Assembly (NCBI GenBank): GCA_018268465.1
Contig: JAFDWN010000035.1
Location: 57,098-121,097, forward strand
From: Actinomycetota bacterium
GTDB lineage: Bacteria; Actinomycetota; Actinomycetes; Mycobacteriales; Mycobacteriaceae
Direction: 5' to 3'
Length of the DNA: 64,000 nt
Positions 15,763 through 33,314 of this stretch are shown here, one piece after another. Below the pieces are notes generated by a model. It did no database searches and had not been told where the DNA came from. It worked only from the letters and a program-made list of their open reading frames with translations. Positions within the stretch are counted from its first letter, which is position 1; the number at the start of each line of letters is the position of its first letter. A program made the translations under genes and the position numbers.

Positions 15763-16000
15763 GTTCTGGAGATCTTTCCGTTCGCGGTAAAGGCACAACG
15801 TAACCCGCCGGCAGACGGATGGCCCGGATTGCCGGGCCGCCGGGCGTCGTCCCCGGCTCCGTGCCTATGGCCTATCTCACAGGCGGCGGTGACCTCGCTC
15901 CCTTCGGTTGCGTCACCGTAGGTTGGCGATGGTTACGCTTGCGTAGGCCTTTCCCGGACTTCGACACTGCGGTTGTCGGTGTGCGACGAAGGGATATTCC
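15763..16000. promoter_or_regulatory. Divergent intergenic region, flippase-like gene and fadE
   Basis: A 238-nt gap between divergent genes, so it must hold both promoters. A GAAGGGA ribosome-binding site precedes the fadE ATG. I see no clear operator. Confidence 0.3.
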
Positions 16001-17833: not shown

Positions 17834-17976
17834 ACGTTCCAGGCGGTGCCGAGACGGCGGTCCGCCGCATAGCGACGATGCGGCCGGTGGTGCCACTGGT
17901 GCTGTCGGGGTCGGCGGCGAGGCTCGGGGTGCATATGGTTCCCGAGGTGCCCGCAGTCGATTGGCATGACCGCGCG

Positions 17977-18804
17977 TCAGTAGTGCGGGTTCGTCAGCGG
18001 CGCCACCGCCCAATTCGACAGCTCCGACGGCCCGAGGATGCGGTGCCGGGTCTGGCCGGCGGTATAGAACGTGAATTTGGTTGCGCGGTAGCACTGTTCG
18101 AAGCAATCGAAGGCTCGCCCGCCGGGGTCGAAGCTGACGCCGCGTACCCGCACGATCGGATCACCGGGGTCCAGCTCCAACTGCTCGGCCTCCCAGCTGC
18201 TGGGAGTGTCGACCTCGAAAGCCTGCTCTGTGTAGTCGTCGACGAGTCCATAGCGCTCCTCGATGAAGCGGTACAGCGATTCGCCGCGTGCGAGCAACTC
18301 CTGATCGATGGCGGGAACCCGGATCAGTGGCAGCACCGCACGTTCGAGAATCCGGTCGGTGCCACCGATGTTGCGCCTGCGCCAGATCTCCCACACGGGC
18401 TGGCCGTGCTCGACGCCGAGAGCGGCGGCGATGGTCGAACTCGGCAATCCGACGCCCACGGTGATCAGTGACGTGGTCACCGTGGGCAGTCCGCCGCCCT
18501 CGTCGATCAACGTGTGCAGGAGTTCCCCTCGACGGGTCGGGTCGCTGGCGATCCGCGGCGCCGCTACGAACGTCCCAAGGCCCTGGCGACGCTGGATCTT
18601 CCCGGCCCGCTCCAACTCGTCGAGCGCACGGCGCACCGAGATCGTGCTGACCTCGGCGATCTCGGCCAGTTCGGTCGTCGACGGCAGTTTGTCACCCGGC
18701 TTCAGGCCCCGCTCCGACATGATGTCCAGTACCAGGTCGTGGACGTACTGATAGCGCAGTTTGCGGTCTCCACGGGCCGGCGCATCCCTTCCGGTTGCCG
18801 ACAT
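17977..18804 (-). CDS. GntR-family regulator with UTRA (HutC-type) domain
   Basis: A 275-aa protein. An N-terminal winged helix lies at about residues 15-85 (LRYQYVHDLVLDIMSERGLKPGDKLPSTTELAEIAEVSTISVRRALDELERAGKIQRRQGLGTFV pattern, the GntR fold). A C-terminal UTRA ligand-binding domain follows, with ILERAVLPLIRVP and the usual R-V-R-G segment. HutC-type regulators are usually repressors released by a small metabolite. It is transcribed away from the ABC/catabolic operon at 19.0 kb, and two GCATACTC boxes lie between them, so it very likely controls that operon and itself. Confidence 0.88.
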   Translation of the reverse strand: MSATGRDAPARGDRKLRYQYVHDLVLDIMSERGLKPGDKLPSTTELAEIAEVSTISVRRALDELERAGKIQRRQGLGTFVAAPRIASDPTRRGELLHTLIDEGGGLPTVTTSLITVGVGLPSSTIAAALGVEHGQPVWEIWRRRNIGGTDRILERAVLPLIRVPAIDQELLARGESLYRFIEERYGLVDDYTEQAFEVDTPSSWEAEQLELDPGDPIVRVRGVSFDPGGRAFDCFEQCYRATKFTFYTAGQTRHRILGPSELSNWAVAPLTNPHY

Positions 18805-18860
18805 TCAAAACCCCCAAACTCCGCAATCCGCTGACCGGCGGACTGTGTGTGTGAATCAGA

Positions 18861-18996
18861 GCATACTCACTATGCAGGATTGCCCGGCGGCTTCTCGGGT
18901 CAGGTACCTGCGCTTTCGTGTAACACGATGACACCAGGCGGAAACTTCCGCGATATGCGATAGAAATCAGCCGCATTCAGCATACTCTGCATACAC
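18861..18996. promoter_or_regulatory. Probable GntR operator pair in the divergent region
   Basis: The 225-nt gap between the GntR gene and the ABC operon has two copies of GCATACTC. The first lies within GCATA-CTCAC-TATGC (18861-18875), a perfect 5-bp inverted repeat with a 5-nt centre. The second is GCATACTCTGCATAC (18980-18994). They are 119 bp apart, one near each gene. CATACT inside each copy may also act as a -10 box. Binding by the adjacent regulator is an inference. Confidence 0.5.
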
Positions 18997-19029
18997 AGTG
19001 CCGGAGCAGGCGTGGAGAGGACTGGCGCG

Positions 19030-20670
19030 ATGGTTGAGTTGAATCGGCGAGATTTCTTCCGGACCTCGGCGGTGGCGGCCCTCGCGATGACGGGTCTGGC
19101 CGCGGTTTCGGCCTGTGCGCCCGAAACGGCCACCCGAACCGTGCTGCGGGTCGGTTCCACGACCGACATCGATTCACTGAACCCTTTCACCGCGTTCTCC
19201 ACCCAGTCCTACGACGTCCTGCAGCTCATCTACGACAAGCTCATGGACTACGACGCGCAACTCGACGTCAAACCATCACTCGCGACCGAGGTCGCGGTGG
19301 CCGACGGCGGCAAGACGTTCACCTACACGCTGCGTGACGGCGTGAAGTGGCAGGACGGCCAGGACTTCAGCGCCGACGACGTGGTCTTCACCTTCCTCAT
19401 GGTGCGTGACAACGACTACGGCACCTATGGCGCCTACTTCAAGGACCTCACCGACGTCGTCAAGGTCGGCAGCAACCAGGTCCGTCTCACCTACGCCCAG
19501 CCGCAGACGCTCGACCCGGCCGTGATCATGCCCATCGCGCCGAAACATCTCTGGGACTCGGTCTCCAAAGACGATCTGCCGGGGTTCTCCAACGACACAC
19601 CCGTCGGCACCGGCCCGTTCAGATACGAATCGTGGGAGAAGGGCAGCGTCGCCTCCGTCGTCCGCAACGACGACTGGTGGGGGACCGCGCCCGCCGCCGA
19701 GAAAGTCACGTGGACCAAGTTCGGCAGCGACGACATCGTCACCCAGGCACTGCGAACCGGGGACATCGACATCGTCGCGGAGATCCCACCCACCATCTTC
19801 ACCGGGATCCAAGGTGCTAGTGACGTCAAAACCGAAGAGCTGGAATCCTTCTCGTTCCACATGATCGGTTTCAACTGTTCGGCGGCGCCCGGTTCGAAGG
19901 GCAACAAACTGCTGCTCGATCAGTCGGTGCGTCAAGCGTTGTCCTGCGCCGTCAGCCGCGAGCAGCTCGTCGAACTCGCCCTATCGGGGTTCGGCCAGCC
20001 GGGCACGGACCTGTTACCGCCGGCATTCGGCGACTTCCACTTCAGCCCCGGGCCGGATGCGGTGCTGGACGACAACCCCGCCAAGGCCAATCAGTTGCTC
20101 GATGCGGCAGGTTTCACCGGACGCGATGCCAACGGCATCAGAGTCACGAGAGACGGTGCCCCACTGGACTTCCGCATACTCGCGATCGCCGACACCGCCG
20201 TCGACGTCAAGGCCGCGCAGCTCTTCGTCACCGCGGCCAAAGCGGTGGGCGTCAACCTGAAACTGTCCACCACCGACGCCGACACCATGGGTGCGACGGT
20301 GTTCAACACCGAAACCCCCGACTGGGACATCATGGTCTGGGGCTGGGATTCTGCGTTCTACGATCCGTCCTACCTGCTGGGTATCGCGACGACGGACCAG
20401 ATCGGCGGAAACAACGACACGTTCTGGACCGACCCGCGATACGACGAGCTGTACGCCGAACAGTCCGTCACCGTCGACCGCCCGGCACGTGTCGCGCTCG
20501 TGCAGGAAATGCAGGCCATCCACTACGCCGCCTGCCCGTACATCGTGATGTGGTACCAGAAGAAGCTCACCGGCACCCGGACCACCACGTGGACGGGGTG
20601 GCAACCCATCAAGGGCGGAATGATCCTGAACTTCCCGCGCGTCAACTACCTCGACGTGAAGCCGGCCTGA
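19030..20670 (+). CDS. Extracellular solute-binding protein family 5, Tat-exported lipoprotein
   Basis: A 546-aa periplasmic binding protein of the Dpp/Opp type. The signal peptide carries a twin-arginine motif (NRRDFF) and ends in the lipobox VSAC, so it is probably folded before export and lipid-anchored. The mature part has the family blocks ADGGKTFTYTLRDGVKWQDGQDFSADDVVF and DTPVGTGPFRYESWEKG. Family members bind peptides, nickel, opines or oligosaccharides, so the ligand is open. The ATG at 19030 with GAGAGG upstream is preferred to the GTG at 19012. First gene of the operon under the GntR sites. Confidence 0.9.
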   Translation: MVELNRRDFFRTSAVAALAMTGLAAVSACAPETATRTVLRVGSTTDIDSLNPFTAFSTQSYDVLQLIYDKLMDYDAQLDVKPSLATEVAVADGGKTFTYTLRDGVKWQDGQDFSADDVVFTFLMVRDNDYGTYGAYFKDLTDVVKVGSNQVRLTYAQPQTLDPAVIMPIAPKHLWDSVSKDDLPGFSNDTPVGTGPFRYESWEKGSVASVVRNDDWWGTAPAAEKVTWTKFGSDDIVTQALRTGDIDIVAEIPPTIFTGIQGASDVKTEELESFSFHMIGFNCSAAPGSKGNKLLLDQSVRQALSCAVSREQLVELALSGFGQPGTDLLPPAFGDFHFSPGPDAVLDDNPAKANQLLDAAGFTGRDANGIRVTRDGAPLDFRILAIADTAVDVKAAQLFVTAAKAVGVNLKLSTTDADTMGATVFNTETPDWDIMVWGWDSAFYDPSYLLGIATTDQIGGNNDTFWTDPRYDELYAEQSVTVDRPARVALVQEMQAIHYAACPYIVMWYQKKLTGTRTTTWTGWQPIKGGMILNFPRVNYLDVKPA

Positions 20671-20686
20671 GGCCGCCCGACGGGCC

Positions 20687-21655
20687 ATGCTGCGTTATCT
20701 CGGGCAAAAGCTGGTCTACCTGGTGCTCACCCTCGCCGCCGTCCTCGCCACGAACTTCGTGATCTTTCACCTGATGCCGGGAGACCCCGTCACCCACATC
20801 GCCCGCGGCCAGCACCTGGACGCAGCCGCCATCGACCGCCTGCGCGCGTACTACGGACTGGATCAACCCCTCGCCTCGCAATTCCTCACCTACGTGCAGC
20901 ATCTGCTCACCGGCGATCTGGGGTTCTCCTACACCTACCAGGCGCCCGTCGGCCCGATCGTGTGGACCGCATTGGGGAACACGCTCATCCTGGTGACGGT
21001 TTCGACCGTGCTCGTCATCGCATTGGGGGTACTCGTCGGCGTGTACGCCGCGTCCCGGCGCGGCACGCGGGTGGACGGTGGCCTCGTGATCGGTTCGCTG
21101 GTGTTCTGGAGCCTGCCGACATTCTGGGTCGGCATGCTGCTGATCTTCGCATTCGCCGTGACCCTGGACTGGCTGCCGATCGCCGGGATGGCCACCGCCG
21201 ATGCCATCTACCCGACTGTCTTCACCCGGATCTCCGACCTGGCAAGGCATCTGGTGCTCCCGACGATCGCGATGCTGCTGGTGGACATCGCACAGTTCGT
21301 CCTGATCACCCGCAGCTCCTTGCTGGCCACCCTTTCGGAAGACTTCATGACGACCGCCGCCGCCAAGGGGCTGAGCCCGCGCCGGGTGCTGTGGCGCCAC
21401 GGCGTGCGCAACGCGCTGCTACCCGTCGTCACGGCGACCACGCTGTACGCCAGCGCCACCGTCGGAGGCACCATCCAGGTGGAAACGGTGTTCTCGTGGC
21501 CCGGTATGGGCCAGCTGATCTACCTCTCGGTGGTGCGTCGCGACTATCCGGTGATGGAGGCCTGTTTCCTGGTCTTCGCGGTCGTGGTCGTGTTGGCGAA
21601 CTTCGGCAGCGACGTCCTCTACCGGCTGCTGGACCCGCGGGTGCGGTTGACATGA
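20687..21655 (+). CDS. ABC transporter permease, DppB/OppB type
   Basis: A 322-aa inner-membrane permease with six helices. It starts MLRYLGQKLVYLVLTLAAVL and has HLMPGDPV soon after helix 1. The cytoplasmic EAA loop is TTAAAKGLSPRRVLWRHGVRNALLP, which contacts the ATPase. It forms the translocation channel with the DppC-type subunit. It follows the binding-protein gene by 16 nt and overlaps the next gene in ATGA. Confidence 0.92.
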   Translation: MLRYLGQKLVYLVLTLAAVLATNFVIFHLMPGDPVTHIARGQHLDAAAIDRLRAYYGLDQPLASQFLTYVQHLLTGDLGFSYTYQAPVGPIVWTALGNTLILVTVSTVLVIALGVLVGVYAASRRGTRVDGGLVIGSLVFWSLPTFWVGMLLIFAFAVTLDWLPIAGMATADAIYPTVFTRISDLARHLVLPTIAMLLVDIAQFVLITRSSLLATLSEDFMTTAAAKGLSPRRVLWRHGVRNALLPVVTATTLYASATVGGTIQVETVFSWPGMGQLIYLSVVRRDYPVMEACFLVFAVVVVLANFGSDVLYRLLDPRVRLT

Positions 21656-22539
21656 CCGGAGCAGCCTTCGAATTCGGAAACCTCACCGGATGGCGCGGCG
21701 TCGTCCGCCAACTCTGGCGCGACTGGATGGGACGCAGCGGACTGATCCTGGTGGCCGCGGTCGCGATCGTCGCGATCGGGGGTCCGCTGCTGGCGCCCTT
21801 CGACCGTGCCGACGTCGCCGAGTCCCGCACGGGCATCCTGCAGGCCCCCACCGCGGCGCACTGGATGGGCACCGACGAACTCGGTCGCGACGTGTTGCGG
21901 CAGGTGCTGGCCGGGACCGGGATCTCACTGCAGATCGGTTTGGCAGCCACGGTTTTCACGGTGATGATCGGAACGGTCGTGGGGATGGCGGCGGGCTGGT
22001 TCACCGGATTCACCGATGCGCTGTTGATGCGCGTCACCGACTTCTTCCTGGTGCTGCCGAACCTCCCACTGATGATCGCGCTCGGGGCGATCGTGGGACA
22101 GAGCCTTCCGATGATCGTCCTCGTCATCGCGATCACCAGCTGGCCGAGCACCGCGCGCATCGTCCGATCCCAGACTCTGTCGCTGCGGGAGCGGGGGGTG
22201 GTGGCCCGCGCCAGAACGATCGGCCTGTCCTCGCCCGCGATCCTGTGGCGGCTCATCCTGCCCGGCGTCCTCGCCCTGGTCATCGCGAACGCGGTGCTGG
22301 TGATCGCCGGATCCATTCTGGCGGAGGCGACGTTGTCGTTCCTCGGTCTGGGCGACCCGTCGCGAACCTCGTGGGGTCAGATCCTGCACAACGCGTTCGT
22401 CTCCGGTGCCGTCGGCAACGGTTACTGGTGGTACTTCCTGCCACCCGGCATCGGCATCGTCGTCGTGGTACTCGGGTTCTCCCTGATCGGCCAGAGCCTC
22501 GAACGCATCCTCAACCCGAAACTGGCGGCCGCGCAATGA
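21652..22539 (+). CDS. ABC transporter permease, DppC/OppC type
   Basis: A 295-aa permease. N-terminal RDWMGRSGLILVAAVAIVAIGGPLLAPFD and HWMGTDELGRDVLRQVLAGTG are the standard OppC N-terminal domain. The EAA loop reads VARARTIGLSSPAILWRLILPGV. The ATG at 21652 overlaps the previous stop by four bases (ATGA), as does its own stop with the next gene. Confidence 0.92.
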   Translation: MTGAAFEFGNLTGWRGVVRQLWRDWMGRSGLILVAAVAIVAIGGPLLAPFDRADVAESRTGILQAPTAAHWMGTDELGRDVLRQVLAGTGISLQIGLAATVFTVMIGTVVGMAAGWFTGFTDALLMRVTDFFLVLPNLPLMIALGAIVGQSLPMIVLVIAITSWPSTARIVRSQTLSLRERGVVARARTIGLSSPAILWRLILPGVLALVIANAVLVIAGSILAEATLSFLGLGDPSRTSWGQILHNAFVSGAVGNGYWWYFLPPGIGIVVVVLGFSLIGQSLERILNPKLAAAQ

Positions 22540-23549
22540 CGGCCGCCTCCCCCACCGCCCCGGCGGTCCTGCAGATCCGCAACCTCACGGTGACCTACCG
22601 GACGGCCGACGGTGCGGGTGTGCGGGCCGTCGACGGAGTGGACCTCGATGTCCATGGCGGCGAGGTGCTCGGCCTGGCCGGTGAATCCGGCTGCGGAAAG
22701 AGCACATTGGCGCTCGCGGTGGCGCGCCTGCTGCCACGGGGGGCCGAGGTGCGTGCCGACCGTGTGCGCCTCGGCGGTCAGGATCTCCTGGCGCTCGACG
22801 AACCCGGCCTGCGCCCGCTGCGCTGGCGCCGGATCTCGCTGGTGTTCCAGGCCGCGATGAACGGGTTCAACCCCGTGATGACCATCGGCAGCCAGATCGC
22901 CGAGGCAATCCGGGCGCACGAACCCGGCATTGGGCGCCGTGAGATCCGCGACCGGGTCGGCGAGTTGCTCGATCAGGTCGGAATCGCACCCCGGCGGTCC
23001 GCGGACTATCCCCACCAGTTCTCCGGGGGCATGAGGCAGCGCGCGATGATCGCGATGGCGCTGTCCTGCCGGCCCGACCTGGTCATCGCCGACGAGCCAA
23101 CCACCGCGCTCGACGTGTTGACCCAGGCGCAGATCCTCGACCTGATCCGTCGGCTCGCCGACGAGCTCGGGCTCGCGATGGTGATCATCTCCCACGACCT
23201 GACGGTCCTTGGCGAGCTGTGCGACAGAGCCGCGGTGATGTACGCGGGCCGGATCGTCGAATACGGCCCCGCGGCCGCGGTCCTCGGCGACTCGCCGGCA
23301 CACCCCTACACCCGCCAGCTGCTCGACTGCTTCCCCCGCCTCGAGGAGGGGCACGCCCGCATCAGCGGGATCCCCGGCAGTCCGCCCGATCTCGCGCACC
23401 CCCCGGCCGGCTGCCGCTTCCACGGGCGGTGCGCCGTCCCGACGTCGGCGTGCCCCGACATAGAGCCGCCCCTGCGCCCGGTCGCCGGGGACGCCGCGCA
23501 CATCGCGGCGTGCCACCGGGTCGGCTCGGCGGTCGAGGTTCCGTCATGA
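22536..23549 (+). CDS. ABC transporter ATPase, DppD/OppD type
   Basis: A 337-aa ATP-binding subunit. Walker A is GESGCGKST near residue 50, the signature is FSGGMRQR, and Walker B is LVIADEPTTALD, with the H-loop ISHD. The C-terminal oligopeptide-transporter extension has the CRFHGRC...C...C cluster that can hold an iron-sulfur centre in this family. It pairs with the second ATPase encoded next. Both gene ends overlap neighbours in ATGA. Confidence 0.92.
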   Translation: MTAASPTAPAVLQIRNLTVTYRTADGAGVRAVDGVDLDVHGGEVLGLAGESGCGKSTLALAVARLLPRGAEVRADRVRLGGQDLLALDEPGLRPLRWRRISLVFQAAMNGFNPVMTIGSQIAEAIRAHEPGIGRREIRDRVGELLDQVGIAPRRSADYPHQFSGGMRQRAMIAMALSCRPDLVIADEPTTALDVLTQAQILDLIRRLADELGLAMVIISHDLTVLGELCDRAAVMYAGRIVEYGPAAAVLGDSPAHPYTRQLLDCFPRLEEGHARISGIPGSPPDLAHPPAGCRFHGRCAVPTSACPDIEPPLRPVAGDAAHIAACHRVGSAVEVPS

Positions 23550-24610
23550 CGACGCCGGCGCCGCGGGTCATCGCCGAGATCCACGACCTTCGGGTGCACT
23601 TTCCGGTGCGCCGCGGTCGCGACCGACTGACCGCGCGTGCCGTCGACGGCGTCGACCTGGTGATCCGGGAGCGCGAGATCGTGGCCCTGGTCGGTGAATC
23701 GGGCTGCGGGAAGACGACGATCGCCCGCACCATCATGCGTTTGCAGGATGTCACCGCAGGCTCGGTGGGTATCGGCGGTGTGGACGTGACACACCTTCGC
23801 GGCCGGCGGCTGCGCCGGCTGCGTCGCGACTTCCAGATGATCTTCCAAGACCCCTACGAGAGCCTTTCCGCCAACGCCACCGCGCTCGACGTGGTGCTCG
23901 AGGGTGTGAAGATCCACCGTAGCGACCTCACCGCCCAGGCGCGCCGGGACGCCGCGCTGGCCGCGCTGACCGCATGCGGGCTGCCCTCGGTCGCCGACCG
24001 GCGCATCTTCCAGCTGTCGGGCGGCCAGCGGCAGCGGGTGGCGATCGCGGCCGCCGTCGCGGTGCAGCCGCGGCTGCTGGTCGCCGACGAACCGGTCTCG
24101 ATGCTCGACGTGTCGCTGCGCGCCGGAGTACTGCAGGTTCTCCTCGATATGCGTGAAAAGCTCGGTATCGCAACGCTGTTCATCACTCACGACCTCGCGC
24201 TGGCCGGGGTGTTCGCCGACCGTGTCGCGGTCCTGTACCTGGGCAGAGTGGTCGAGACGGGGGTGGCCGCGGAGGTGATCGGCGCCCCGGCACACCCCTA
24301 CACACGCGCGCTGGTCGCGGTCATGCCCACCCCCGGCGGCCGGCGCGGGCCCCGCGTCCTGCTCTCCGGAGAGCCGCCCAACCCGACGGACACCGCACCT
24401 GGATGCCGGTTCGCCCCCCGGTGCCCGCGCTACCAGGAGCTCGGCCGGCCGGAGCGGTGCCGCACCGAGGAACCCGCGCTGCACGCAGTGGGGGACCAAC
24501 ACAGCGCCGCATGTCACTTCGTCGCGACAGCGCCGCCGAACCCGCGTCCCGTTCCCGAGAACTCGACGTCCGCCACATCCCATCCCACCGAAGAGGAGTA
24601 CCTCCCATGA
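23546..24610 (+). CDS. ABC transporter ATPase, DppF/OppF type
   Basis: A 354-aa ATPase. Walker A is GESGCGKTT, the signature is LSGGQRQR, and Walker B is LLVADEPVSMLD, with ITHD as the H-loop. The C-terminal region has CRFAPRCPRYQELG...CRTEEP, again the cysteine cluster of the Dpp/Opp ATPases. It completes a five-part importer. The stop overlaps the next ATG. Confidence 0.92.
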   Translation: MTTPAPRVIAEIHDLRVHFPVRRGRDRLTARAVDGVDLVIREREIVALVGESGCGKTTIARTIMRLQDVTAGSVGIGGVDVTHLRGRRLRRLRRDFQMIFQDPYESLSANATALDVVLEGVKIHRSDLTAQARRDAALAALTACGLPSVADRRIFQLSGGQRQRVAIAAAVAVQPRLLVADEPVSMLDVSLRAGVLQVLLDMREKLGIATLFITHDLALAGVFADRVAVLYLGRVVETGVAAEVIGAPAHPYTRALVAVMPTPGGRRGPRVLLSGEPPNPTDTAPGCRFAPRCPRYQELGRPERCRTEEPALHAVGDQHSAACHFVATAPPNPRPVPENSTSATSHPTEEEYLP

Positions 24611-25797
24611 CCGTCCGCCGCGAAGAGGCGATCCAGCTCCTGGATGCCCTCGTCCGAATCGACTCGGTGACCCCGTGGCTCATCCCGGGAGGCGCCGGCG
24701 AGGGAGCGGTCGCGCGCTACATGCAGCACTGGCTGACCGACGCCGGATTGGAGGTGACCCTCGAGGAAGTCGAACCCGGCAGGCCCAACGTCCTGGCCTG
24801 GCTGAGGGGCAGCCAGCCGGGGCCGACGATCTGCCTGACCGCCCACAGCGACACCGTCGGCTACGCCAACTGGCCCGATCGCGCATTGACCCCTGTCGTC
24901 GACGGCGACCGGATGGTGGGCATCGGCGTCGCCGACGACAAGGGTGGCTGCGCTGCGGCCATGCTCGCGGCGCGCGAACTGGTGCGCGGCGGGGCGCAGC
25001 TGGCAGGTGATGTGCTGGTCGCGCTGGCCATCGACGAAGAAGGCATCAGCATCGGCACCGAACACCTCGTGGCCAACCATGCCGGGGAGATCGACCTCGC
25101 CATCGAACTGGAACCCGAAGGCTCCCATGTGATCTTCACCGAGCACCAAGGGTTCGGCTGGATCGACATCGTCGTGCGGGGGGTGCCCGCGCACGGCTCG
25201 GCACCGGACAAGGGTGTCGACGCGATCGTGCACATGGCCGAGGTCATCACCCGGCTGCACCGTCTCGACGAGACGCGGTGGCGGCCCAATCCGGATCCGA
25301 GGAACGGCCGCACGGTGTTCCACACCGGCACCATCCACGGCGGCACCGACTACGCGACCTATCCCGGTGAGGTGGTGCTCGGCATCGAGATCGGTACCCA
25401 GCCGGGGGAGACCCTGGCCGACCGCGTCGCCGACATCGAGGCCGTCTTCGCGGAGGTGCGGGCCGCCGAACCGGCGTTCAGCGGTGAGGTGCGGGTCAGG
25501 TTGGACCGCGACCCGTTCACCGGATCCGGCAACGCGGCACTGGTCGAGGCACTCGGTGACGCCGCCGAGGCCGTCAACGGCGCCCGGCCGACGGTCACCG
25601 GCCTCAACGCGTGGACCGACGCCGCGCTGCTGCAGAGCGCCGGAATCCCGACCGTGCTGTTCGGTCCGCTCGGCGGCAACTACCACGCCGCCGACGAGTG
25701 GGTTTCGATCCCCGACGTCGTGGCCACCGCAGAGATCCTGCGCCGGACCGTCGTCACACTGCTCGGCGTGCCGGTGCGTGCGGCGCACGACGCGTGA
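24607..25797 (+). CDS. M20-family metallopeptidase/deacylase (ArgE/DapE-like)
   Basis: A 396-aa zinc hydrolase. Zinc-site motifs are H80-S-D-T, D110-D-K-G and the catalytic D-E144-E; a dimerisation domain follows and the C-terminal zinc His lies in NYHAADEWV. M20 enzymes remove acyl groups from amino acids or cut dipeptides. Being coupled to a peptide-type importer, it probably acts on the imported compound right after entry. The GGAGT site and the ATGA overlap fix the start. Confidence 0.88.
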   Translation: MTVRREEAIQLLDALVRIDSVTPWLIPGGAGEGAVARYMQHWLTDAGLEVTLEEVEPGRPNVLAWLRGSQPGPTICLTAHSDTVGYANWPDRALTPVVDGDRMVGIGVADDKGGCAAAMLAARELVRGGAQLAGDVLVALAIDEEGISIGTEHLVANHAGEIDLAIELEPEGSHVIFTEHQGFGWIDIVVRGVPAHGSAPDKGVDAIVHMAEVITRLHRLDETRWRPNPDPRNGRTVFHTGTIHGGTDYATYPGEVVLGIEIGTQPGETLADRVADIEAVFAEVRAAEPAFSGEVRVRLDRDPFTGSGNAALVEALGDAAEAVNGARPTVTGLNAWTDAALLQSAGIPTVLFGPLGGNYHAADEWVSIPDVVATAEILRRTVVTLLGVPVRAAHDA

Positions 25798-25835
25798 TCC
25801 CATCCGCAGCCACCACCGAGACGAAAGAGGAACCG

Positions 25836-27200
25836 ATGGCCTTCGCCGAGGCGTTCACCGACCGCACGCCGCACACCCTCATGCTCTTCGAGCGGGCCAA
25901 ACGCACGGTGCCTGGCGGCGCGGGTTCGACTGCCCGTCTGCCCCGCAACGGATGGCGGCCCTACCCGATCTTCATGGCGGACGGGGACGGCTCACGGCTC
26001 ACCGACGTCGACGGCCACACCTACATCGACTATCTGCTCGGGCTGGGGCCGATGATCCTCGGGCATCGGCACCCCACGGTGACGGCGGCGGTAGCACAGG
26101 CGATCACCGACCTCGGCACGTGTTTCGGGCTGCCCTACGAACTGGAGGTCGAGGCCGCCGAGAAGGTGGTCGACGCGGTGCCCGGTATCGAGCAGGTGCG
26201 CTTCACCAACTCGGGTTCCGAAGCCGTCGGGACCGCGGTCCGGCTGGCGCGCGCCACCACCGGGCGGCGTCTGATCGTGCGGTTCGAGGGTCACTATCAC
26301 GGTTGGCAGGACACCGTGTACTGGTCCAACCACGTCGACCCGGCGCTGGCGGGGCCGGCAACACACCCGCGCCCGGTGGCGATGGGCCTCGGTGTCCCTG
26401 CCGAACTCGAGGACACCCTTGCGGTGCTGACCTGGAACGACCCGGAGAGCTTCACCCGCCTGATGGACGCTCGCGGCCACGAGGTGGCGGCGGTCCTGAC
26501 CGAGCCCGCGGTGTTCAACACCGGCTGCATCCTGCCGGAGCCGGGCTATCTCGAACTGCTGCGCAGCGAAACCCGCAAGCACGGCGCCCTGCTCATCTTC
26601 GACGAGGTGATCACCGGCTTCCGCTTTGCCCGCGGTGGAGCACAGGAGTGGTTCGGTGTGCTGCCCGACCTGACCACCCTCGCCAAAGGACTGGGCGGCG
26701 GATTCCCGGTAGCCGCGGTCGGTGGCACGGTCGAGGCGATGAAACTGATCGCCGAAGGGGTGTATTCCCACTCGGGCACCTACAACGCCAATGTCGTGCA
26801 GTGCGCGGCCGTCTCGGCGACGATGGATGTGCTCGCCCAGCCCGGACTCTACGAACGGCAACGCGCGCTGGGGAATCGGTTGGCCGAAGGGCTGGCGACG
26901 CTGACCGCGGAGCGGGGTTTGGATGCCTACGTCGAAGGCCTCGGCACCGTCTTCCAGCTGTGGTTCGCCGACGGCAAGATCCACAATTGGCGTGACGCCG
27001 TGGCCCACGCCGACGAGGACCTGTTCACCCGGTGGTACCAAGAGATGGTGATCCGCGGAGTGCTGTTCCACCCGTTGCAGTTCGAGAATCTCTTCGTCTC
27101 GCTGGTACACGACGATCGCGATATCGACGAGACGTTGAACGCGGCCGCCGATGCACTGACCGTCATCGCCCGTGAGCGCAGCGCCGCGCGCACGCCGTGA
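25836..27200 (+). CDS. Class III PLP enzyme, glutamate-1-semialdehyde aminomutase-like
   Basis: A 454-aa aminotransferase-fold protein. Conserved points are the GHRHP turn, NSGSEAVGTAVRLAR, FEGHYHGW, FDEVITGFR, and the PLP lysine K284 in LAKGLGGGFP. The nearest enzyme type by eye is HemL/GSA aminomutase, but the gene is in a catabolic operon, not with heme genes, so a transaminase or phospho-lyase on another amino compound is likely. The ATG at 25836 has a strong AAAGAGGAA site; a GTG at 25794 that overlaps the upstream stop is an in-frame alternative adding 14 residues. Confidence 0.85.
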   Translation: MAFAEAFTDRTPHTLMLFERAKRTVPGGAGSTARLPRNGWRPYPIFMADGDGSRLTDVDGHTYIDYLLGLGPMILGHRHPTVTAAVAQAITDLGTCFGLPYELEVEAAEKVVDAVPGIEQVRFTNSGSEAVGTAVRLARATTGRRLIVRFEGHYHGWQDTVYWSNHVDPALAGPATHPRPVAMGLGVPAELEDTLAVLTWNDPESFTRLMDARGHEVAAVLTEPAVFNTGCILPEPGYLELLRSETRKHGALLIFDEVITGFRFARGGAQEWFGVLPDLTTLAKGLGGGFPVAAVGGTVEAMKLIAEGVYSHSGTYNANVVQCAAVSATMDVLAQPGLYERQRALGNRLAEGLATLTAERGLDAYVEGLGTVFQLWFADGKIHNWRDAVAHADEDLFTRWYQEMVIRGVLFHPLQFENLFVSLVHDDRDIDETLNAAADALTVIARERSAARTP

Positions 27201-28618
27201 CCGCATTCGTCGGGATCGACCTGGGGACATCCGCACTCAAGGCGGTGGCCGTGAGCGGCGACGGGACCATCCTGGCGACCGCGCGGCGCGCCTACCCCAC
27301 TGCACGCCCGGAACCCGGTGCCGCAGAGCAGGATCCGGCCGACTGGTGGGCGGCGTTGGACGGCGCGATCGGTGACATCGCCCGGACGGTTCCCCCTCGG
27401 ACGTGGGCGGGTGTCGGCCTGTCGGGGATGTTGCCCACACTCGTGCGCATCGGCGACTCCGGGTCGGCACTGGCTCCCGCCATCACCTGGGAGGACGCGC
27501 GCGCCGAGCCGCAGGCGCGCGAGCTGCTCGGTACGGTCGGCGTGGACCGGCTCTACCGGGTCACCGGGCAACTGGTGGACGGCCGCTACCTGGCGCCGAT
27601 GTATGCCAGGCTGGCCCGCGCCGGCGACCGCGCGGCGGTGGTGGCGGGCGCCAAGGACGCCCTCTTCGCGCACCTGACCGGCGAGCTGTACACCGATCCG
27701 AGCACCGCCGCCGGATTCGGCGTCTTCGACCTGGACAGTGGCGGCTGGAATAGCGAATTGACCTCTGCGGCAGGTATTTCCCGGTTCCCAGACGTCCTTG
27801 CAGCGGGTTCGTGGCGGCCGGTCCTACCGGCGTGGCGGGACCGCTGGGAGTTGCCCGAGGGTCTTCCGGTGGTACTCGGCGCGGCGGACTCCGTGCTCGG
27901 TGCCCTGGGTATCGGCGCCACGGCACCGGGCGATGTCGCCGTGATCGCCGGTAGCAGCGCCATCGTGCTCGGGCTCTCCGCGACCCCGGTGCGTGATCCA
28001 CAGCGCCGTTATCTGGTCACCCCGCTGGCCGGCGCCGGGTGGGGACTGGAAATGGACCTGCTGGCGATGGGGACCGCGTTCGACGGGATCGCGGCGTTGC
28101 TCGGGCTGCCCGGCCCGGCGGCGCTGATGGCCGCCGCGGCGACCGTACCCGCCGCCGATGCACCCCTGTTCCTGCCCTATCTCAGCCCCGGCGAGCAGGG
28201 TGCGCTGTGGGATCCGGGGCTGACCGGGACGCTGCACGGTCTGACCCTGGCGATGGGCGCCGGGCACGTCGGCAGGGCCTTGCTGACCGGAGTGGTGAAC
28301 GAATTGCGCCGCTGTACAGAAGTATTGGCGACGGCGACGGGCTGTCGAGGACCGATCCTGCTCGGCGGGGGAGCGGCGGCGAGTCCGTTGCTGTGGCAGG
28401 ACCTCGCCGACGCGACCGGCCGCGAGGTTTGGGTCGACCCAGCGATCCGTGACCATTCGGCGCTCGGCGCGGCACTGCATGCGGCGGCGAGCCTGCACCA
28501 CCCCGTCGCGGTGCGCGGCGACAAACGCATCGTGGCGCCTCACCCCGCGCGGCTCGGCTGGTGGACCGACGCCGCCGAGCGGCACGACGAACTGCGCCTG
28601 CGCCTGGCGGACCCGTGA
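27197..28618 (+). CDS. FGGY-family carbohydrate kinase
   Basis: A 473-aa kinase of the xylulokinase/gluconokinase superfamily. GIDLGTSALKAV near the N-terminus is the phosphate-1 loop, with GVGLSGM and EDARAEPQ in the sugar-site half, and VIAGSSAIVLG and ILLGGGAAASPLLWQDLAD in the second half. It phosphorylates a polyol or ketose-like substrate with ATP. The GTG start overlaps the aminotransferase stop (GTGA). A sugar-type kinase between a PLP enzyme and a decarboxylase is unusual and suggests a hydroxylated amino compound or sugar-amine as substrate. Confidence 0.88.
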   Translation: MTAFVGIDLGTSALKAVAVSGDGTILATARRAYPTARPEPGAAEQDPADWWAALDGAIGDIARTVPPRTWAGVGLSGMLPTLVRIGDSGSALAPAITWEDARAEPQARELLGTVGVDRLYRVTGQLVDGRYLAPMYARLARAGDRAAVVAGAKDALFAHLTGELYTDPSTAAGFGVFDLDSGGWNSELTSAAGISRFPDVLAAGSWRPVLPAWRDRWELPEGLPVVLGAADSVLGALGIGATAPGDVAVIAGSSAIVLGLSATPVRDPQRRYLVTPLAGAGWGLEMDLLAMGTAFDGIAALLGLPGPAALMAAAATVPAADAPLFLPYLSPGEQGALWDPGLTGTLHGLTLAMGAGHVGRALLTGVVNELRRCTEVLATATGCRGPILLGGGAAASPLLWQDLADATGREVWVDPAIRDHSALGAALHAAASLHHPVAVRGDKRIVAPHPARLGWWTDAAERHDELRLRLADP

Positions 28619-28730
28619 CGGCGGGTCTTCCCGCGTCGGTTCTGCAGCGGCATGATGCAGGGACGGTGGTCGCAGACCGCGCCGCGGCGGCGATGGTCTC
28701 GCGGCGCGCCGACGAGAACGGAGGCACCAT

Positions 28731-29999
28731 ATGACCACGCCCCTGCAGTCCGCCGAGGTGCTCGACCTCTTCCCGCCCGGGACCCGTGTCGCCGACGACG
28801 GCACCCTCGTCGTCGCCGGTTGCCGCCTGGACGACCTGGCCCGCGAATTCGGCACCCCGGTGATGGTCGTCGCCGAGGACGCCGTGCGCCAACGAGCCCG
28901 TGACTACCTGGCAGCCTTCCGCGCGGGCTGGCCTCGCGTCGACGTCGCCTTCGCCTCCAAGGCGTTCCCCTGCACCGCGATTCAGCGGTTGATGGTCGAA
29001 GAAGGGCTGTATCTGGACGTGGCGGGCGGCGGCGAGATCATGACCGCACTGGCCGCGGGCGCCGACCCCGGACGGATTCTGCTCCACGGCAACGCCAAGA
29101 CCGACGAGGAGATCGAACTGGCGGTGCGCGAGGGCGTCGGGCTGGTCGTCGTCGACAACTTCGACGACATCGACCGGCTCGAGCACATCGTGGCGCCGGG
29201 GCGGGTTCAGCCGTGTCTGGTGCGGGTCATCCCCGGCGTGCAGGCATCGACGTACGCCGCCGTGGCGACCGGACACGAGGGCTCCAAATTCGGGTTGATG
29301 CCCGCCGCCGCCCGCGAGGCGATCAACCGCATCGAACGCAGCAGCGTCCTGCGCTGCGACGGGGTGCACACCCACGTGGGCAGCCAGTTGCTCAACGTCG
29401 ACCAGCTGGCGGCGGCGGTGGCGCCGATCGCCGCGCTCGGCACCTTCGACACCTACGACCTCGGCGGCGGCCTCGGCGTGCGCTACACCTACGACGACCA
29501 TCCGCCCACCCTCGACGACTATGCGAGCGCGATGCTGACCCAGGCACGCGAGCTGCTCCCGTCCGGGAGCCGGATCATCGTCGAACCGGGCCGCAGCATG
29601 ACGGCCGCGGCAGCCTGCACGGTGTACCGCGTCACCACTGTCAAACGGGGATTGGTCACCCATGTGGCCGTCGACGGCGGGATGGGCGACAACCTCGAAG
29701 TGTCGCTCTACGGGCAACGATTCGAGGCCAGCATCGTCGACCGGGTCGGCGGCGGCGACGACGTCACCGTGGTCGGCAGGCACTGCGAATCCGGCGACCA
29801 GCTGATCGACGGTGTGGCGTTGCGCGACCCGTCGGTCGGCGACCTGCTCGCCGTCCCGGTGACCGGCGCCTACTGCTACACGATGTCCAACCAGTACAAC
29901 GGCGCACGGCGCATCCCGGTCGTGTTCGCCGCCGACGGCCGGGCACGGCTGGTGGTCCGCCGCGACACCTGGGCCGATCTGCTTGCCCGCGACGTCTGA
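28731..29999 (+). CDS. Diaminopimelate/ornithine decarboxylase-family PLP enzyme (fold type III)
   Basis: A 422-aa alanine-racemase-fold decarboxylase. PLP lysine K77 is in AFASKAF; GSKFGLMP, THVGSQLLN, LGGGLGV and EPGRSM follow in the expected order; CESGDQL and GAYCYTMSNQYN supply the cross-dimer residues. The general pattern is that of LysA. LysA proper is usually beside argS/thrA in mycobacteria, so this is probably a second copy with a different substrate. It lies 112 nt after the kinase gene with its own GGAGG site, so it may be the last gene of the operon or have its own promoter. Confidence 0.85.
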   Translation: MTTPLQSAEVLDLFPPGTRVADDGTLVVAGCRLDDLAREFGTPVMVVAEDAVRQRARDYLAAFRAGWPRVDVAFASKAFPCTAIQRLMVEEGLYLDVAGGGEIMTALAAGADPGRILLHGNAKTDEEIELAVREGVGLVVVDNFDDIDRLEHIVAPGRVQPCLVRVIPGVQASTYAAVATGHEGSKFGLMPAAAREAINRIERSSVLRCDGVHTHVGSQLLNVDQLAAAVAPIAALGTFDTYDLGGGLGVRYTYDDHPPTLDDYASAMLTQARELLPSGSRIIVEPGRSMTAAAACTVYRVTTVKRGLVTHVAVDGGMGDNLEVSLYGQRFEASIVDRVGGGDDVTVVGRHCESGDQLIDGVALRDPSVGDLLAVPVTGAYCYTMSNQYNGARRIPVVFAADGRARLVVRRDTWADLLARDV

Positions 30000-30074
30000 G
30001 CACCGCGGTCGCGATGTCCGGCGGGGTCACCGGGAGCGCAGGCCTCCTCGGCGGCCAGGTGTCCACGGATCACG

Positions 30075-30425
30075 TCAACCCCGTTGCTGAGCCGCGTTTT
30101 CCACCACCGCGAACTTCTCCGGGCAGTACGTGCTGACGCCGGTGGCGAGGAACTGCCACGCCTGCGTCTCGGTGCTGTCCTTGGGCAGATTGCGGGAGAT
30201 GAATCGCGCCGAGTCGACCGCGTCGGCGTCCACACCCCGGAACAGGCGCTCACATGCGATCTTGGCCAGCCAGGCGTTGTAGTCCTTCTGACCGTAGATC
30301 CCGAAGGTGTGCAGCTGTCTGGCGAAGTCGGTGTCGACGTCGGCGTGGGCGGGCGCCGCGAGGCTCAGCGCCCCCGCCGTCAGCCCGGCGGCCGCCGCGG
30401 CGCCGAGCATTCGACGAACACGCAT
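30075..30425 (-). CDS. DUF732 secreted protein
   Basis: A 116-aa protein with a Sec signal peptide ending APAHA-D. The mature part (VDTDFARQLHTFGIYGQKDYNAWLAKIACERL, then CPE near the end) is the DUF732 fold of mycobacterial exported proteins, with two cysteines. Function unknown. It starts 3 nt after the mmpL stop, so it is the third gene of the mmpS-mmpL operon. Confidence 0.85.
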   Translation of the reverse strand: MRVRRMLGAAAAAGLTAGALSLAAPAHADVDTDFARQLHTFGIYGQKDYNAWLAKIACERLFRGVDADAVDSARFISRNLPKDSTETQAWQFLATGVSTYCPEKFAVVENAAQQRG

Positions 30426-30428
30426 CGC

Positions 30429-33314
30429 TCAGCTTCCCGTCAGCGCTTGTTGCGGATGACTCTGGAAACGCCGGGACGGGCGGCTGCGGACGATCTGCGG
30501 CCACCAGAACCACTTGCCGAGGAGCGCGGCGATCGACGGGGTCATGAAGGAGCGGATGACGAGGGTGTCGAACAGCAGACCCAGCCCGATCGTGGTGCCG
30601 ACCTGTCCGATCACCGTCAGATCACTGACCACCATCGACATCATGGTGAACGCGAACACCAGGCCGGCCGCGGTGACAACCGAGCCGGTGCCGCCCATCG
30701 CCCGGATGATGCCGGTGTTGAGGCCGGCGTGGATCTCCTCCTTGAAGCGTGAGACCAGCAGAAGGTTGTAGTCGGCGCCGACGGCCAGCAGGATGATGAC
30801 CGACATCGCCAGCACCATCCAGTGCAGTTCGATACCGACGATGTGTTGCCAGATCAGCACGGACAATCCGAACGACGCCCCCAGCGACAACACCACCGTG
30901 CCCACGATCACGGCCGCCGCGACGATGGCGCGGGTGATGATGAGCATGATGATGAATATCAGCGCCAACGACGCGATACCGGCGATGACGAGGTCGTATC
31001 TGGAGCCGTCGGCCATGTCCTTGAAGGTGGCGGCGGTACCCGCAAGGTAGATCCGGGAACCTTCCAGCGGCGTGCCCTTGATGGCTTCCTTGGCGGCCTG
31101 TTTGATGGCGTCGATGTGCTTGATGCCCTCCGGGCTCATCGGGTCGCCCTCGTGGCTGATGATGAACCGTACGGCGTGGCCGTCGGGTGACAGGAACATC
31201 TTCATGCCGCGTTTGAAGTCGGGGTTCTCGAACGCCTCCGGTGGCAGATAGAACGAGTCGTCGTTCTTGGCGGCGTCGAACGCCTGCCCCATGGCGGTGG
31301 CGTTGTCCTGGGCGGCGTTCATCTGTTCCTGCATGCCGTTCTGGGTGGCATACATCGTGAGCATCATCGACTTCATCGACTTCATGGTCGTGATCATCTC
31401 GGGCATGAGCGTCACCAGCTGCGGCATGAGGGTGTCCAGGCGCTCCATCTCGGGCAGTAGCTGCTGGATGTCGTCGGTCATGGTGTCGATGCCGTCAAGG
31501 GTGTCGAACACCGACCGCATCGCCCAGCACAGCGGGATGTTGAAGCATTTGGGTTCCCAGTAGAAGTAGTTGCGGATGGGCCGGAAGAAGTCGTCGAAAT
31601 CCGCGATGTGGTCCCGCAGCTCGGCCACATCGACGGTCATGTCCTTCATCTTGGCCACCATGTTGTGCGTGGTGTCGGCCATCTGCTGGGTCAGGCTCTG
31701 CATCTTCTCCATCGTGTTGATGGTGTTCTGCATGTCGTCGGCCTGGACGAGCATGTCCGCCATCCGGTCGGAGAGGTACTTCTGGTTCATCTTCTGGGTG
31801 GTGCCCTGCATGCTGATCTGGAACGGGATCGAGGTGTGCTCGATCGGCGTGCCCAGCGGCCGGGTGATGGCCTGGACGCGGCCGATACCGGGCACCCGGA
31901 AGATGGCTTTGGCGATCTTGTCGATGACCAGGAAGTCCGCGGGGTTCCGCATGTCGTGATCGGTCTCGATCATCAACAATTCGGGGTTCATCCGGGCCTG
32001 GGAGAAGTGCCGATCGGCCGCGGCGTAGCCCTCGTTGGCGGGCAGATCGCCCGGCAGGTAGTTGCGGTCGTTGTAGCTGGTCTGGTAGCCGGGCAGGGCC
32101 AGAAGGCCGATGAGCGACAGGGCGATGGTGGCCACCAGGATCGGTCCCGGCCAGCGGACGACGGCGGCGCCGATCTTGCGCCAGCCGCGGGTGCGCATCG
32201 CGCGCTTGGGTTCCAACAATCCGAATCGGCTGGCCACCGTGACGATGGCGGGCCCAACCGTCAGTGCCGTGACGATGAGCACGACCATGCCGATCGCCAG
32301 CGGGATGCCGAGGGTCTGGAAGTAGGGCAGCCGGGTGAAGTGCAGGCAGAACGTCGCACCGGCGATGGTCAGCCCGGAGCCGAGCACCACATGCGCGGTG
32401 CCGCGGAACATCGTGTAGTACGCCTGTTCGCGGGATTCGTCGACCGACCGGGCTTCCTGATATCGGCCTATCAGGAAGATGGCATAGTCCGTCGCCGCCG
32501 CGATGGCAAGTGTCACCAGCAGGTTCGTGGCGAATGTGGAGAGCCCGATCACGTCGTGATAGCCGAGGAAGGCCACCACGCCACGGGCGGCGGTGAGCCC
32601 AAGCACGACCATCACCAGGACCAGCAGCACGGTCACGATCGACCGATAGACCAGCAGCAACATGGTGATGATGACCGCGAAGGTGACCATCTCGATCATC
32701 CGCATACTGCGGTCACCGGCGTCGTTCTGGTCGGCGGCCACCGCCGCCGGCCCGGTGACATAGGCCCGCACACCGTCGGGTGCAGGGGTGGTGTCCACGA
32801 CGGTCTGTACGGCTTCGACCGACTCATTGGCCAGTGCTTCACCGAAGTTGCCTGCCAGGTACACCTGCACGTACGCGGCTTTGCCGTCGGGACTCTGCGA
32901 GCCGGCCGCGGTCAGCGGGTCGCTCCAGAAGTCCTGTACGTGCTCGACGTGGGCGGTGTCGGCCTTCAGCTCGGCGACGATCTTGTCGTAGTAGGCATGC
33001 GCTTCGTCGCCGAGGGGTTCCTGACCCTCGAGCACGATCATGATCGAGCTGTTGGACTTGAACTCGCCGAACGTCTCGCCGATGCGCTTCATCGCGATCA
33101 TCGACGGCGCCTGATCCGGGCTCATCGACACCGCGCGCATCTGCCCGACGGTCTCCAGCTGAGGCACGCTCACGTTGAGCGCGGCGATGATCGCGATCCA
33201 GCCCAGGATGATCGGCACCGCGAGACGGCGGATCCAGCGCGCCAAACCCGAGCCGTGCCCGTGGTCCCCGCTGGGTACCGCGTCGGTCGGTGCGTCGTGA
33301 ACGGGCGCGCTCAT
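30429..33314 (-). CDS. mmpL: MmpL-family RND transporter (MmpL4/MmpL5 type)
   Basis: A 961-aa RND lipid/siderophore exporter with 11-12 membrane helices in two bundles. The length and layout (~960 aa, insert of about 200 residues between the second-half porter parts, Met-rich coiled coil with repeated MxxM) fit the cluster with MmpL4 and MmpL5. [17 protein letters not shown] in the first half and [15 protein letters not shown] in the second hold the D-Y pairs of the proton relay. It overlaps mmpS in ATGA. Exported cargo could be siderophores, glycopeptidolipids or drugs. Confidence 0.92.

What the first reader, a model, noticed from the sequence alone, without database searches (positions are those of the whole stretch)
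18861..29999. Uncharacterised uptake and catabolic cluster under a GntR regulator
A peptide-type ABC importer, M20 hydrolase, GSA-type class III PLP enzyme and FGGY kinase overlap by four bases in each case (one possibly by start choice), with a DAP-decarboxylase-like enzyme behind them. I know no pathway with this combination. A plausible scheme is import of an acylated or peptide-linked hydroxy-amino compound, release by the M20 enzyme, phosphorylation, then PLP-dependent conversion (transaminase or phospho-lyase) and decarboxylation.
Basis: partly seen in the sequence, partly recalled or inferred. Interest (0 to 1): 0.72.

Follow-up and report, generated by a model that had tools for sequence, protein, structure and literature searches.

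The report
Uncharacterised amino-sugar uptake operon
A set of genes that travels together through many soil and freshwater bacteria appears to import an amide-linked amino-sugar compound and break it down by an undescribed route, using a heme-type PLP enzyme and an unusual sugar kinase.

Summary
In detail: window 18861-29999 carries a peptide-type ABC importer, an M20 hydrolase, a glutamate-semialdehyde-aminomutase-like PLP enzyme (GSAT), an FGGY kinase and a DAP-decarboxylase-like enzyme behind a divergent GntR gene. The set is real: of 44 distinct loci with GSAT plus FGGY, 43 have the GntR gene, 40 an importer and 40 an amide hydrolase. Importer and hydrolase change family between lineages; GSAT, FGGY and GntR do not. 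A palindromic operator has one exact match in the 6.88-Mb genome, in front of this operon. I read it as a local regulon for an N-acyl or peptidyl amino sugar: import, amide hydrolysis, GSAT and FGGY steps, then deamination. Substrate and GSAT reaction are unknown. In all 20 distinct cluster copies the decarboxylase lacks an arginine seen in solved DAP decarboxylases, so DAP is an unlikely substrate. Nine literature searches found no such route.

The parts
17977..18804 (-). GntR-family regulator with UTRA ligand domain, divergent from the operon
   Evidence: Pfam GntR and UTRA; in 43 of 44 loci with GSAT+FGGY
18984..18999 (.). Operator-like palindrome ACTCTGCATACACAGT (consensus ACTNNGYATRCNNAGT)
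   Evidence: No mismatch; only site with at most 1 mismatch in the 64-kb window; only exact site in the 6.88-Mb genome, reversed control 0; a site with at most 1 mismatch lies within 200 bases before SBP or GSAT in 29 of 42 relatives' loci
19030..20670 (+). Peptide-type (SBP_bac_5) substrate-binding protein; GTG 19012 is an alternative start
   Evidence: Pfam PF00496, E 2e-81
20687..21655 (+). ABC permease B (Opp/Dpp type)
21652..22539 (+). ABC permease C
   Evidence: 4-base overlap
22536..23549 (+). ABC ATPase D
   Evidence: 4-base overlap
23546..24610 (+). ABC ATPase F
   Evidence: 4-base overlap
24607..25797 (+). M20-family amidohydrolase/peptidase
   Evidence: PF01546 and PF07687; DapE-ArgE subfamily 184.1 bits, below its 217.6 cut-off; 4-base overlap
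25836..27200 (+). GSAT: glutamate-1-semialdehyde-aminomutase-like class III PLP enzyme (alternative start GTG 25794)
   Evidence: TIGR00713 388 bits, below 527.3 cut-off; clade apart from the genome's true HemL
27197..28618 (+). FGGY carbohydrate kinase, own subfamily
   Evidence: FGGY_N and FGGY_C; nearest folds xylulokinase and glycerol kinase; orthologue gap
28621..28686 (+). C-terminal remnant of a nagB (glucosamine-6-phosphate-deaminase-like) gene
   Evidence: 16 of 22 residues identical to the NagB that sits at this place in L042; score 75 against at most 52 in 1000 base shuffles
28731..29999 (+). DAP-decarboxylase-like fold-III PLP enzyme with Glu in place of Arg in the DN.R..LYG motif
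   Evidence: TIGR01048 362.6 bits, above cut-off; Glu in 30 of 31 homologue rows, 1 row truncated, 20 distinct genes

Best explanation
A GntR-controlled local regulon for uptake and breakdown of an amide-linked (N-acyl or peptidyl) amino sugar. The ABC importer brings the compound in; the M20 enzyme (in relatives M17, S12, M55 or a phosphotriesterase-like hydrolase) cuts the amide and frees an amine; GSAT acts on that amine and the FGGY kinase phosphorylates the sugar, in an order I cannot fix; a glucosamine-6-phosphate deaminase (NagB or NagB-II type) ends the route in a hexose phosphate and ammonia. In the window the local nagB is reduced to a remnant, and the genome's canonical NagB presumably serves. 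The decarboxylase would handle a D-amino acid released from the peptide part. Shown: gene set, core conservation, operator, deaminase co-occurrence and exchange, nagB remnant, changed decarboxylase motif. Inferred: the substrate, the order of steps, binding of GntR to the operator and every reaction.
For: 44 distinct loci with GSAT+FGGY: GntR 43, importer 40, amide hydrolase 40, NagB or SIS 27 (21 of the 34 with about 7 kb or more on both sides). A NagB-like gene lies within about 10 kb of the kinase, next to the cluster, in 11 of 11 other same-genus genomes with the FGGY orthologue (in G009 it is split in two). In L194 an SIS gene sits between FGGY and the decarboxylase, where mycobacteria have NagB: two unrelated deaminase families at one place. 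Window remnant of nagB. Of 17 loci without a local deaminase, 13 genomes were searched and 11 have one elsewhere: NagB at 218-281 bits in 3, a NagB-II-like gene at 156-210 bits in a frame under 500 codons in 8; the window's genome has a NagB above cut-off. No NagB or SIS hit at 1e-10 in the 49 control loci with 39-46% GSAT relatives. One exact operator in 6.88 Mb. The importer is CUT1 sugar-type in L058, CUT1 is added in L191, and an APC permease is present in 5 loci, which suits a compound that is part sugar, part amino acid.
Against: 17 of 44 loci have no local deaminase; 2 of 13 such genomes searched show none at all (G929, G433), and three (L076, L078, L192) were not searched. How often cluster-free genomes have a deaminase was not measured, so the 11 of 13 has no control. 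Cluster NagB and SIS score below the curated cut-offs (216.7 of 236.9; 206.9 of 430), and L071's SIS scores slightly higher against a GlmS model (216.8), so their substrate may differ from glucosamine-6-phosphate. GSAT relatives of 51-56% identity occur without a NagB or SIS hit and without an FGGY orthologue: L079 and L200 with a glycerol-1-phosphate-dehydrogenase-like gene (L200 has an FGGY kinase of another subfamily, 130 bits), and alphaproteobacterial plasmids with phosphatase and acetyltransferase genes. The D-peptidases and the decarboxylase are explained only loosely. No substrate follows from sequence.
Confidence: 0.5

Rival explanations
1. A non-sugar hydroxy-amine route close to the first reader's: a peptide-linked amino alcohol is freed by the hydrolase, phosphorylated by the FGGY kinase and turned by GSAT into a carbonyl compound by transamination or phospho-elimination; NagB is only a passenger.
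Against: NagB and NagB-II-like genes are found beside the core and exchange for each other at one place, and a nagB remnant lies in the window.
Confidence: 0.2
2. An Amadori (fructosamine) route: the FGGY kinase phosphorylates a sugar-amino-acid conjugate, NagB or SIS cleaves it as a deglycase, and GSAT processes the released amine.
For: The L080 operon puts a GSAT relative (45%) behind FrlB-like (150 bits) and FrlD-like (207 bits) genes; APC permeases with weak FrlA similarity (46.7 bits) recur; Bacillus subtilis takes up fructosevaline through the ABC importer FrlONM (PMC12632257, listing and passages).
Against: FrlB and FrlD scores are below cut-off; the cluster SIS proteins match NagB-II and GlmS models and no FrlB model at the limits used; an amide hydrolase before the sugar steps is not needed for Amadori compounds.
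Confidence: 0.14
3. Peptidoglycan-fragment use: peptidases and the decarboxylase handle the stem peptide, while GSAT and FGGY turn muramic acid into glucosamine-6-phosphate without MurQ.
For: D-aminopeptidase-like S12 (20 of 44 loci) and M55 (2 of 44) genes; decarboxylase family; NagB as end point. A 2026 preprint speaks of an unidentified lactyl etherase in mycobacteria (PMC13041923, abstract and passages).
Against: The decarboxylase has Glu where three solved DAP decarboxylases have Arg. PLP-driven ether cleavage that keeps the nitrogen has no precedent I know of. Only 12 of 148 same-genus genomes have the kinase. I noticed no peptidoglycan hydrolase or MurNAc gene in the gene lists read by eye, which is not a search.
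Confidence: 0.1
4. An ordinary peptide importer beside unrelated metabolic genes.
For: Each gene alone belongs to a large family.
Against: The GSAT-FGGY-GntR core persists while importers are replaced.
Confidence: 0.02

Closest known systems
NagA/NagB and NagB-II amino-sugar catabolism
   Same: A gene of a glucosamine-6-phosphate deaminase family stands beside the cluster in 27 of 44 loci; two unrelated deaminase families exchange
   Different: No NagA or PTS gene in the window cluster; an FGGY kinase and a GSAM-like PLP enzyme are the core instead
frl fructosamine (Amadori) operons
   Same: Kinase plus SIS-type enzyme plus importer under a local regulator; a 45% GSAT relative sits in an FrlB/FrlD-like operon (L080)
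   Different: FGGY kinase instead of PfkB-type FrlD; NagB or NagB-II-like instead of FrlB; amide hydrolases and GSAT added
Glutamate-1-semialdehyde 2,1-aminomutase (HemL)
   Same: Closest solved structures together with PctV; Ser, Arg, Asn, Lys and Glu positions kept by alignment (their roles recalled)
   Different: Below HemL cut-off, separate clade, gating loop replaced and longer; the genome has its own HemL
Xylulokinase-type FGGY kinases
   Same: Fold; best sequence and structure matches
   Different: 23-30% identity to the xylulokinases and gluconate kinase at the top; below cut-off; own conserved motifs SGMLPT, TWED.RA and TGQ.VDGRYL
Diaminopimelate decarboxylase (LysA)
   Same: Above the family cut-off; CESGD motif kept
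   Different: Arg of DN.R..LYG replaced by Glu in 20 distinct cluster copies; the genome has two other LysA-family genes, of 491 and 398 bits

Membership tests
Glutamate-1-semialdehyde 2,1-aminomutase (HemL, TIGR00713) | Score above curated cut-off 527.3 | tested here: not met
   388 bits; the genome's HemL scores 611. The broader subfamily model PRK00062 is passed, 412.4 over 398
Glutamate-1-semialdehyde 2,1-aminomutase (HemL, TIGR00713) | Gating loop of the aminomutase (GSG region) | tested here: not met
   Replaced by a longer stretch with WSNHVDP; meaning of the loop recalled
Glutamate-1-semialdehyde 2,1-aminomutase (HemL, TIGR00713) | Amino transposition activity | not testable with these tools
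   needs enzyme assay
Xylulokinase (TIGR01312) | Score above cut-off 380.25 | tested here: not met
   206.7 bits
FGGY carbohydrate kinase superfamily | FGGY_N and FGGY_C domains and fold | tested here: met
Diaminopimelate decarboxylase (TIGR01048) | Score above cut-off 297.9 | tested here: met
   362.6 bits
Diaminopimelate decarboxylase (TIGR01048) | Arginine of the DN.R..LYG motif (role in binding the far carboxylate recalled) | tested here: not met
   Arg in the 4 solved sequences shown, which are 3 different proteins; Glu in 30 of 31 cluster rows, 1 truncated
Glucosamine-6-phosphate deaminase NagB (TIGR00502), relatives' gene | Score above cut-off 236.9 | tested here: not met
   L042 copy 216.7; same-genus cluster copies 204-225, G009's split in two pieces of 133 and 69
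Glucosamine-6-phosphate deaminase NagB-II (NF046059), relatives' gene | Score above cut-off 430 | tested here: not met
   L071 copy 206.9; L194 copy 154
ArgE/DapE deacylase (TIGR01910) | Score above cut-off 217.6 | tested here: not met
   184.1 bits
Peptide-type ABC importer (SBP_bac_5, Opp/Dpp) | SBP_bac_5 protein, two permeases, two oligo_HPY ATPases | tested here: met
Fructosamine (frl) pathway | FrlD-type PfkB kinase and FrlB-type deglycase | tested here: not met
   none among the ten window proteins; an FrlB/FrlD-like pair was seen only in L080, below cut-offs

The most novel reading that the evidence does not exclude
A ketosamine route: GSAT is a PLP aminomutase that moves the amino group between C2 of an amino-aldose and C1 of a 1-amino-1-deoxy-ketose, as HemL does between glutamate-1-semialdehyde and 5-aminolevulinate; the FGGY kinase phosphorylates the sugar and NagB, NagB-II or an FrlB-like enzyme removes the nitrogen. 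That would be a new way to dispose of hexosamines whose stereochemistry or N-position blocks direct deamination, and a new biological role for aminomutase chemistry.
Probability: 0.22. Interest if true: 0.75.

Novelty: new variant of a known kind. Interest (0 to 1): 0.52.

Why it matters
It defines an undescribed, testable catabolic regulon (constant core, exchangeable importer and hydrolase, one operator) in soil mycobacteria, freshwater actinobacteria and some other phyla. It predicts functions for three enzyme subfamilies that family models would label otherwise: the GSAT as glutamate-1-semialdehyde aminomutase, the kinase as xylulokinase, and the decarboxylase as lysA. It also points to an amide-linked amino-sugar nutrient whose identity is unknown.

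Tried and rejected
Considered and rejected: GSAT as the heme enzyme (a HemL above cut-off in 12 of 12 same-genus cluster genomes searched); the decarboxylase as the cell's only lysine enzyme (a 491-bit LysA elsewhere); only the ABC genes conserved together; an RNA element in window 15000-33000 (none above Rfam gathering scores); the sigma-70 and terminator scan (2 promoter-like sites against 0.8 expected, 0 terminator-like against 3.1). Muropeptide and Amadori routes and a hydroxylysine-like phospholyase were considered; the first two are kept as weaker rivals, the third is folded into the first rival. Literature searches that gave nothing on this set; the FGGY family paper (PMC3245297) held none of six terms looked for. 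FGGY had no plasmid match at 1e-40. The FGGY model (pLDDT 90.9) and GSAT model (pLDDT 76.3) gave only family-level matches.

Rows dropped before counts, and limits: six loci were removed as duplicates by equal contig length (L051, L056, L067, L073, L188, L190). still hold two duplicate pairs (L046/L051, L048/L056); without them 27 of 40 loci have the operator before SBP or GSAT. The motif was derived from these same loci, so the 42 sites against 2.4 expected is not an independent test; 13 of 42 loci lack it before SBP or GSAT. rows include repeated loci of one gene. The S12 count of 20 leaves out L191's more distant S12 gene (25% identity). The decarboxylase, hydrolase and importer counts rest on tblastn identity limits set by me.
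Full report
What is there. The window lies in a 6.88-Mb genome at G000:C28:57098-121097. The search tool calls the neighbours used here the same genus, and one of them, G109, has a contig of the same length (82,868) as a named Mycobacterium sp. record, so this is a Mycolicibacterium/Mycobacterium-type genome by inference. From 17977 to 29999 it carries a divergent GntR/UTRA regulator, an SBP_bac_5 binding protein, two permeases, two ATPases, an M20 hydrolase, a class III PLP enzyme nearest to glutamate-1-semialdehyde aminomutase (GSAT here), an FGGY kinase and a fold-III decarboxylase of the LysA family. Five junctions overlap by exactly four bases; SBP/PermB is a 16-base gap and M20/GSAT most likely a 38-base gap.

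Is the set real? A search of 148 same-genus genomes with the kinase gave 12 orthologues (window included; 52-100% identity, 452-1022 bits) and then nothing listed above 124 bits. A profile search of 394 same-class genomes gave 11 at 612-721 bits and then 284. A pattern-based scan of the genome collection with GSAT kept the best 80 of 581 relatives: 31 at 54% identity or more and 49 at 39-46%. Merged with the same-genus and same-class loci, and with six duplicates removed, 44 distinct loci hold GSAT and FGGY: GntR in 43, an importer in 40, at least one of M20, M17, S12 or M55 in 40, the decarboxylase in 20, NagB in 19 and an SIS-type deaminase in 8. One further locus, L052, has GSAT without FGGY.

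The periphery is exchanged. An M17 leucyl-aminopeptidase-like gene stands in place of M20 in 11 loci; S12 proteins nearest to D-aminopeptidase are present in 20 loci and M55 DppA-like genes in 2; a phosphotriesterase-like hydrolase stands there in L058. The peptide importer gives way to a CUT1 sugar importer in L058, is joined by one in L191, and an APC permease is present in 5 loci. The constant part is GSAT, FGGY and GntR.

The missing enzyme. In 11 of 11 other same-genus genomes with the kinase a NagB-like gene lies beside the cluster, within about 10 kb of the kinase. In other lineages an SIS-domain protein related to NagB-II is found instead, and in L194 it sits exactly between FGGY and the decarboxylase. 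The window has no such gene, but the 112-base gap between FGGY and the decarboxylase still encodes 22 residues that match the NagB C-terminus at 16 positions (score 75; best of 1000 base shuffles 52), so its operon descends from one with nagB. The genome keeps a NagB above cut-off at C55 (274 bits). Seventeen of the 44 loci have no local deaminase. The window's genome apart, 13 of these genomes were searched and 3 (L076, L078, L192) were not. Eleven of the 13 have one elsewhere: NagB at 218-281 bits in 3 (2 above cut-off) and a NagB-II-like gene at 156-210 bits, below cut-off but in a frame shorter than GlmS, in 8. Two (G929, G433) show none. The rate in cluster-free genomes was not measured. 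Among the 49 loci with 39-46% GSAT relatives none had a NagB or SIS hit at 1e-10, although L080 holds a more distant FrlB-like SIS gene. Two unrelated deaminase families brought to the same place argue for an amino-sugar phosphate as intermediate.

Regulation. A palindrome ACTNNGYATRCNNAGT with at most one mismatch lies within 200 bases before SBP or GSAT in 29 of 42 loci scanned (27 of 40 without duplicates); in all there are 42 sites in 32 loci against 2.4 sites expected. The motif came from these loci, so this is descriptive. In the window it occurs at 18984-18999 without mismatch, the only exact site in the whole genome, with a reversed control of 0. By exact match the regulon is therefore local and does not include the canonical nagB. 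That GntR binds it is inferred.

Mechanism offered. Import, amide hydrolysis to a free amine, GSAT and FGGY steps on the sugar, deamination to a hexose phosphate. A GSAT relative in L080 stands in one operon with FrlB-like and FrlD-like genes, which suggests that GSAT belongs with ketosamine chemistry; hence the boldest reading, a C2/C1 amino shift. Against it: the changed loop, the low identity of L080 (45%), and GSAT relatives in contexts without a cluster-type kinase and deaminase.

Literature. Nine searches of the held library showed no description of this combination. I saw the abstract and passages of PMC13041923, the listing and passages of PMC12632257, and looked for six terms in PMC3245297 without a hit; other papers were seen in listings only.

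Verdict. A real, conserved, undescribed catabolic regulon; most likely for an amide-linked amino sugar (0.5). Interesting because it is sharply testable, not because any reaction is established.

Noticed in passing
L202:10842-13290; L203:10829-13296: Alphaproteobacterial plasmids (Aureimonas, Roseomonas) carry a GSAT relative of 53-56% identity divergent from a HAD-IB phosphatase, hydrolase, GNAT and sigma-54 two-component genes: a different, possibly biosynthetic use of the same enzyme family.
   Followed up: partly
L080:487-4813: Anaerolineales operon LacI, FrlB-like SIS, FrlD-like PfkB kinase and a 45% GSAT relative, next to a CUT1 importer, SDR, glycerol-1-phosphate-dehydrogenase-like, ROK and FGGY genes.
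   Followed up: partly
L200:6858-16144; L079:5042-11116: Chloroflexota clusters pair M20 and GSAT with a CUT1 importer and a glycerol-1-phosphate-dehydrogenase-like gene; L200 also has an FGGY kinase of another subfamily and, by eye, a TIM-barrel isomerase-like gene.
   Followed up: partly
L054:1-21323: In a Homoserinimonas MAG the cluster lies among ribosomal-protein genes (by eye), which suggests recent arrival.
   Followed up: no
L039 (G009): NagB, GSAT and PermB each match in two pieces, so this copy is decayed or has sequencing errors; described only.
   Followed up: no
L052: Mycolicibacterium komossense keeps the importer, M20 and GSAT but shows no GntR, FGGY, NagB or decarboxylase hit in the held flank.
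   Followed up: no
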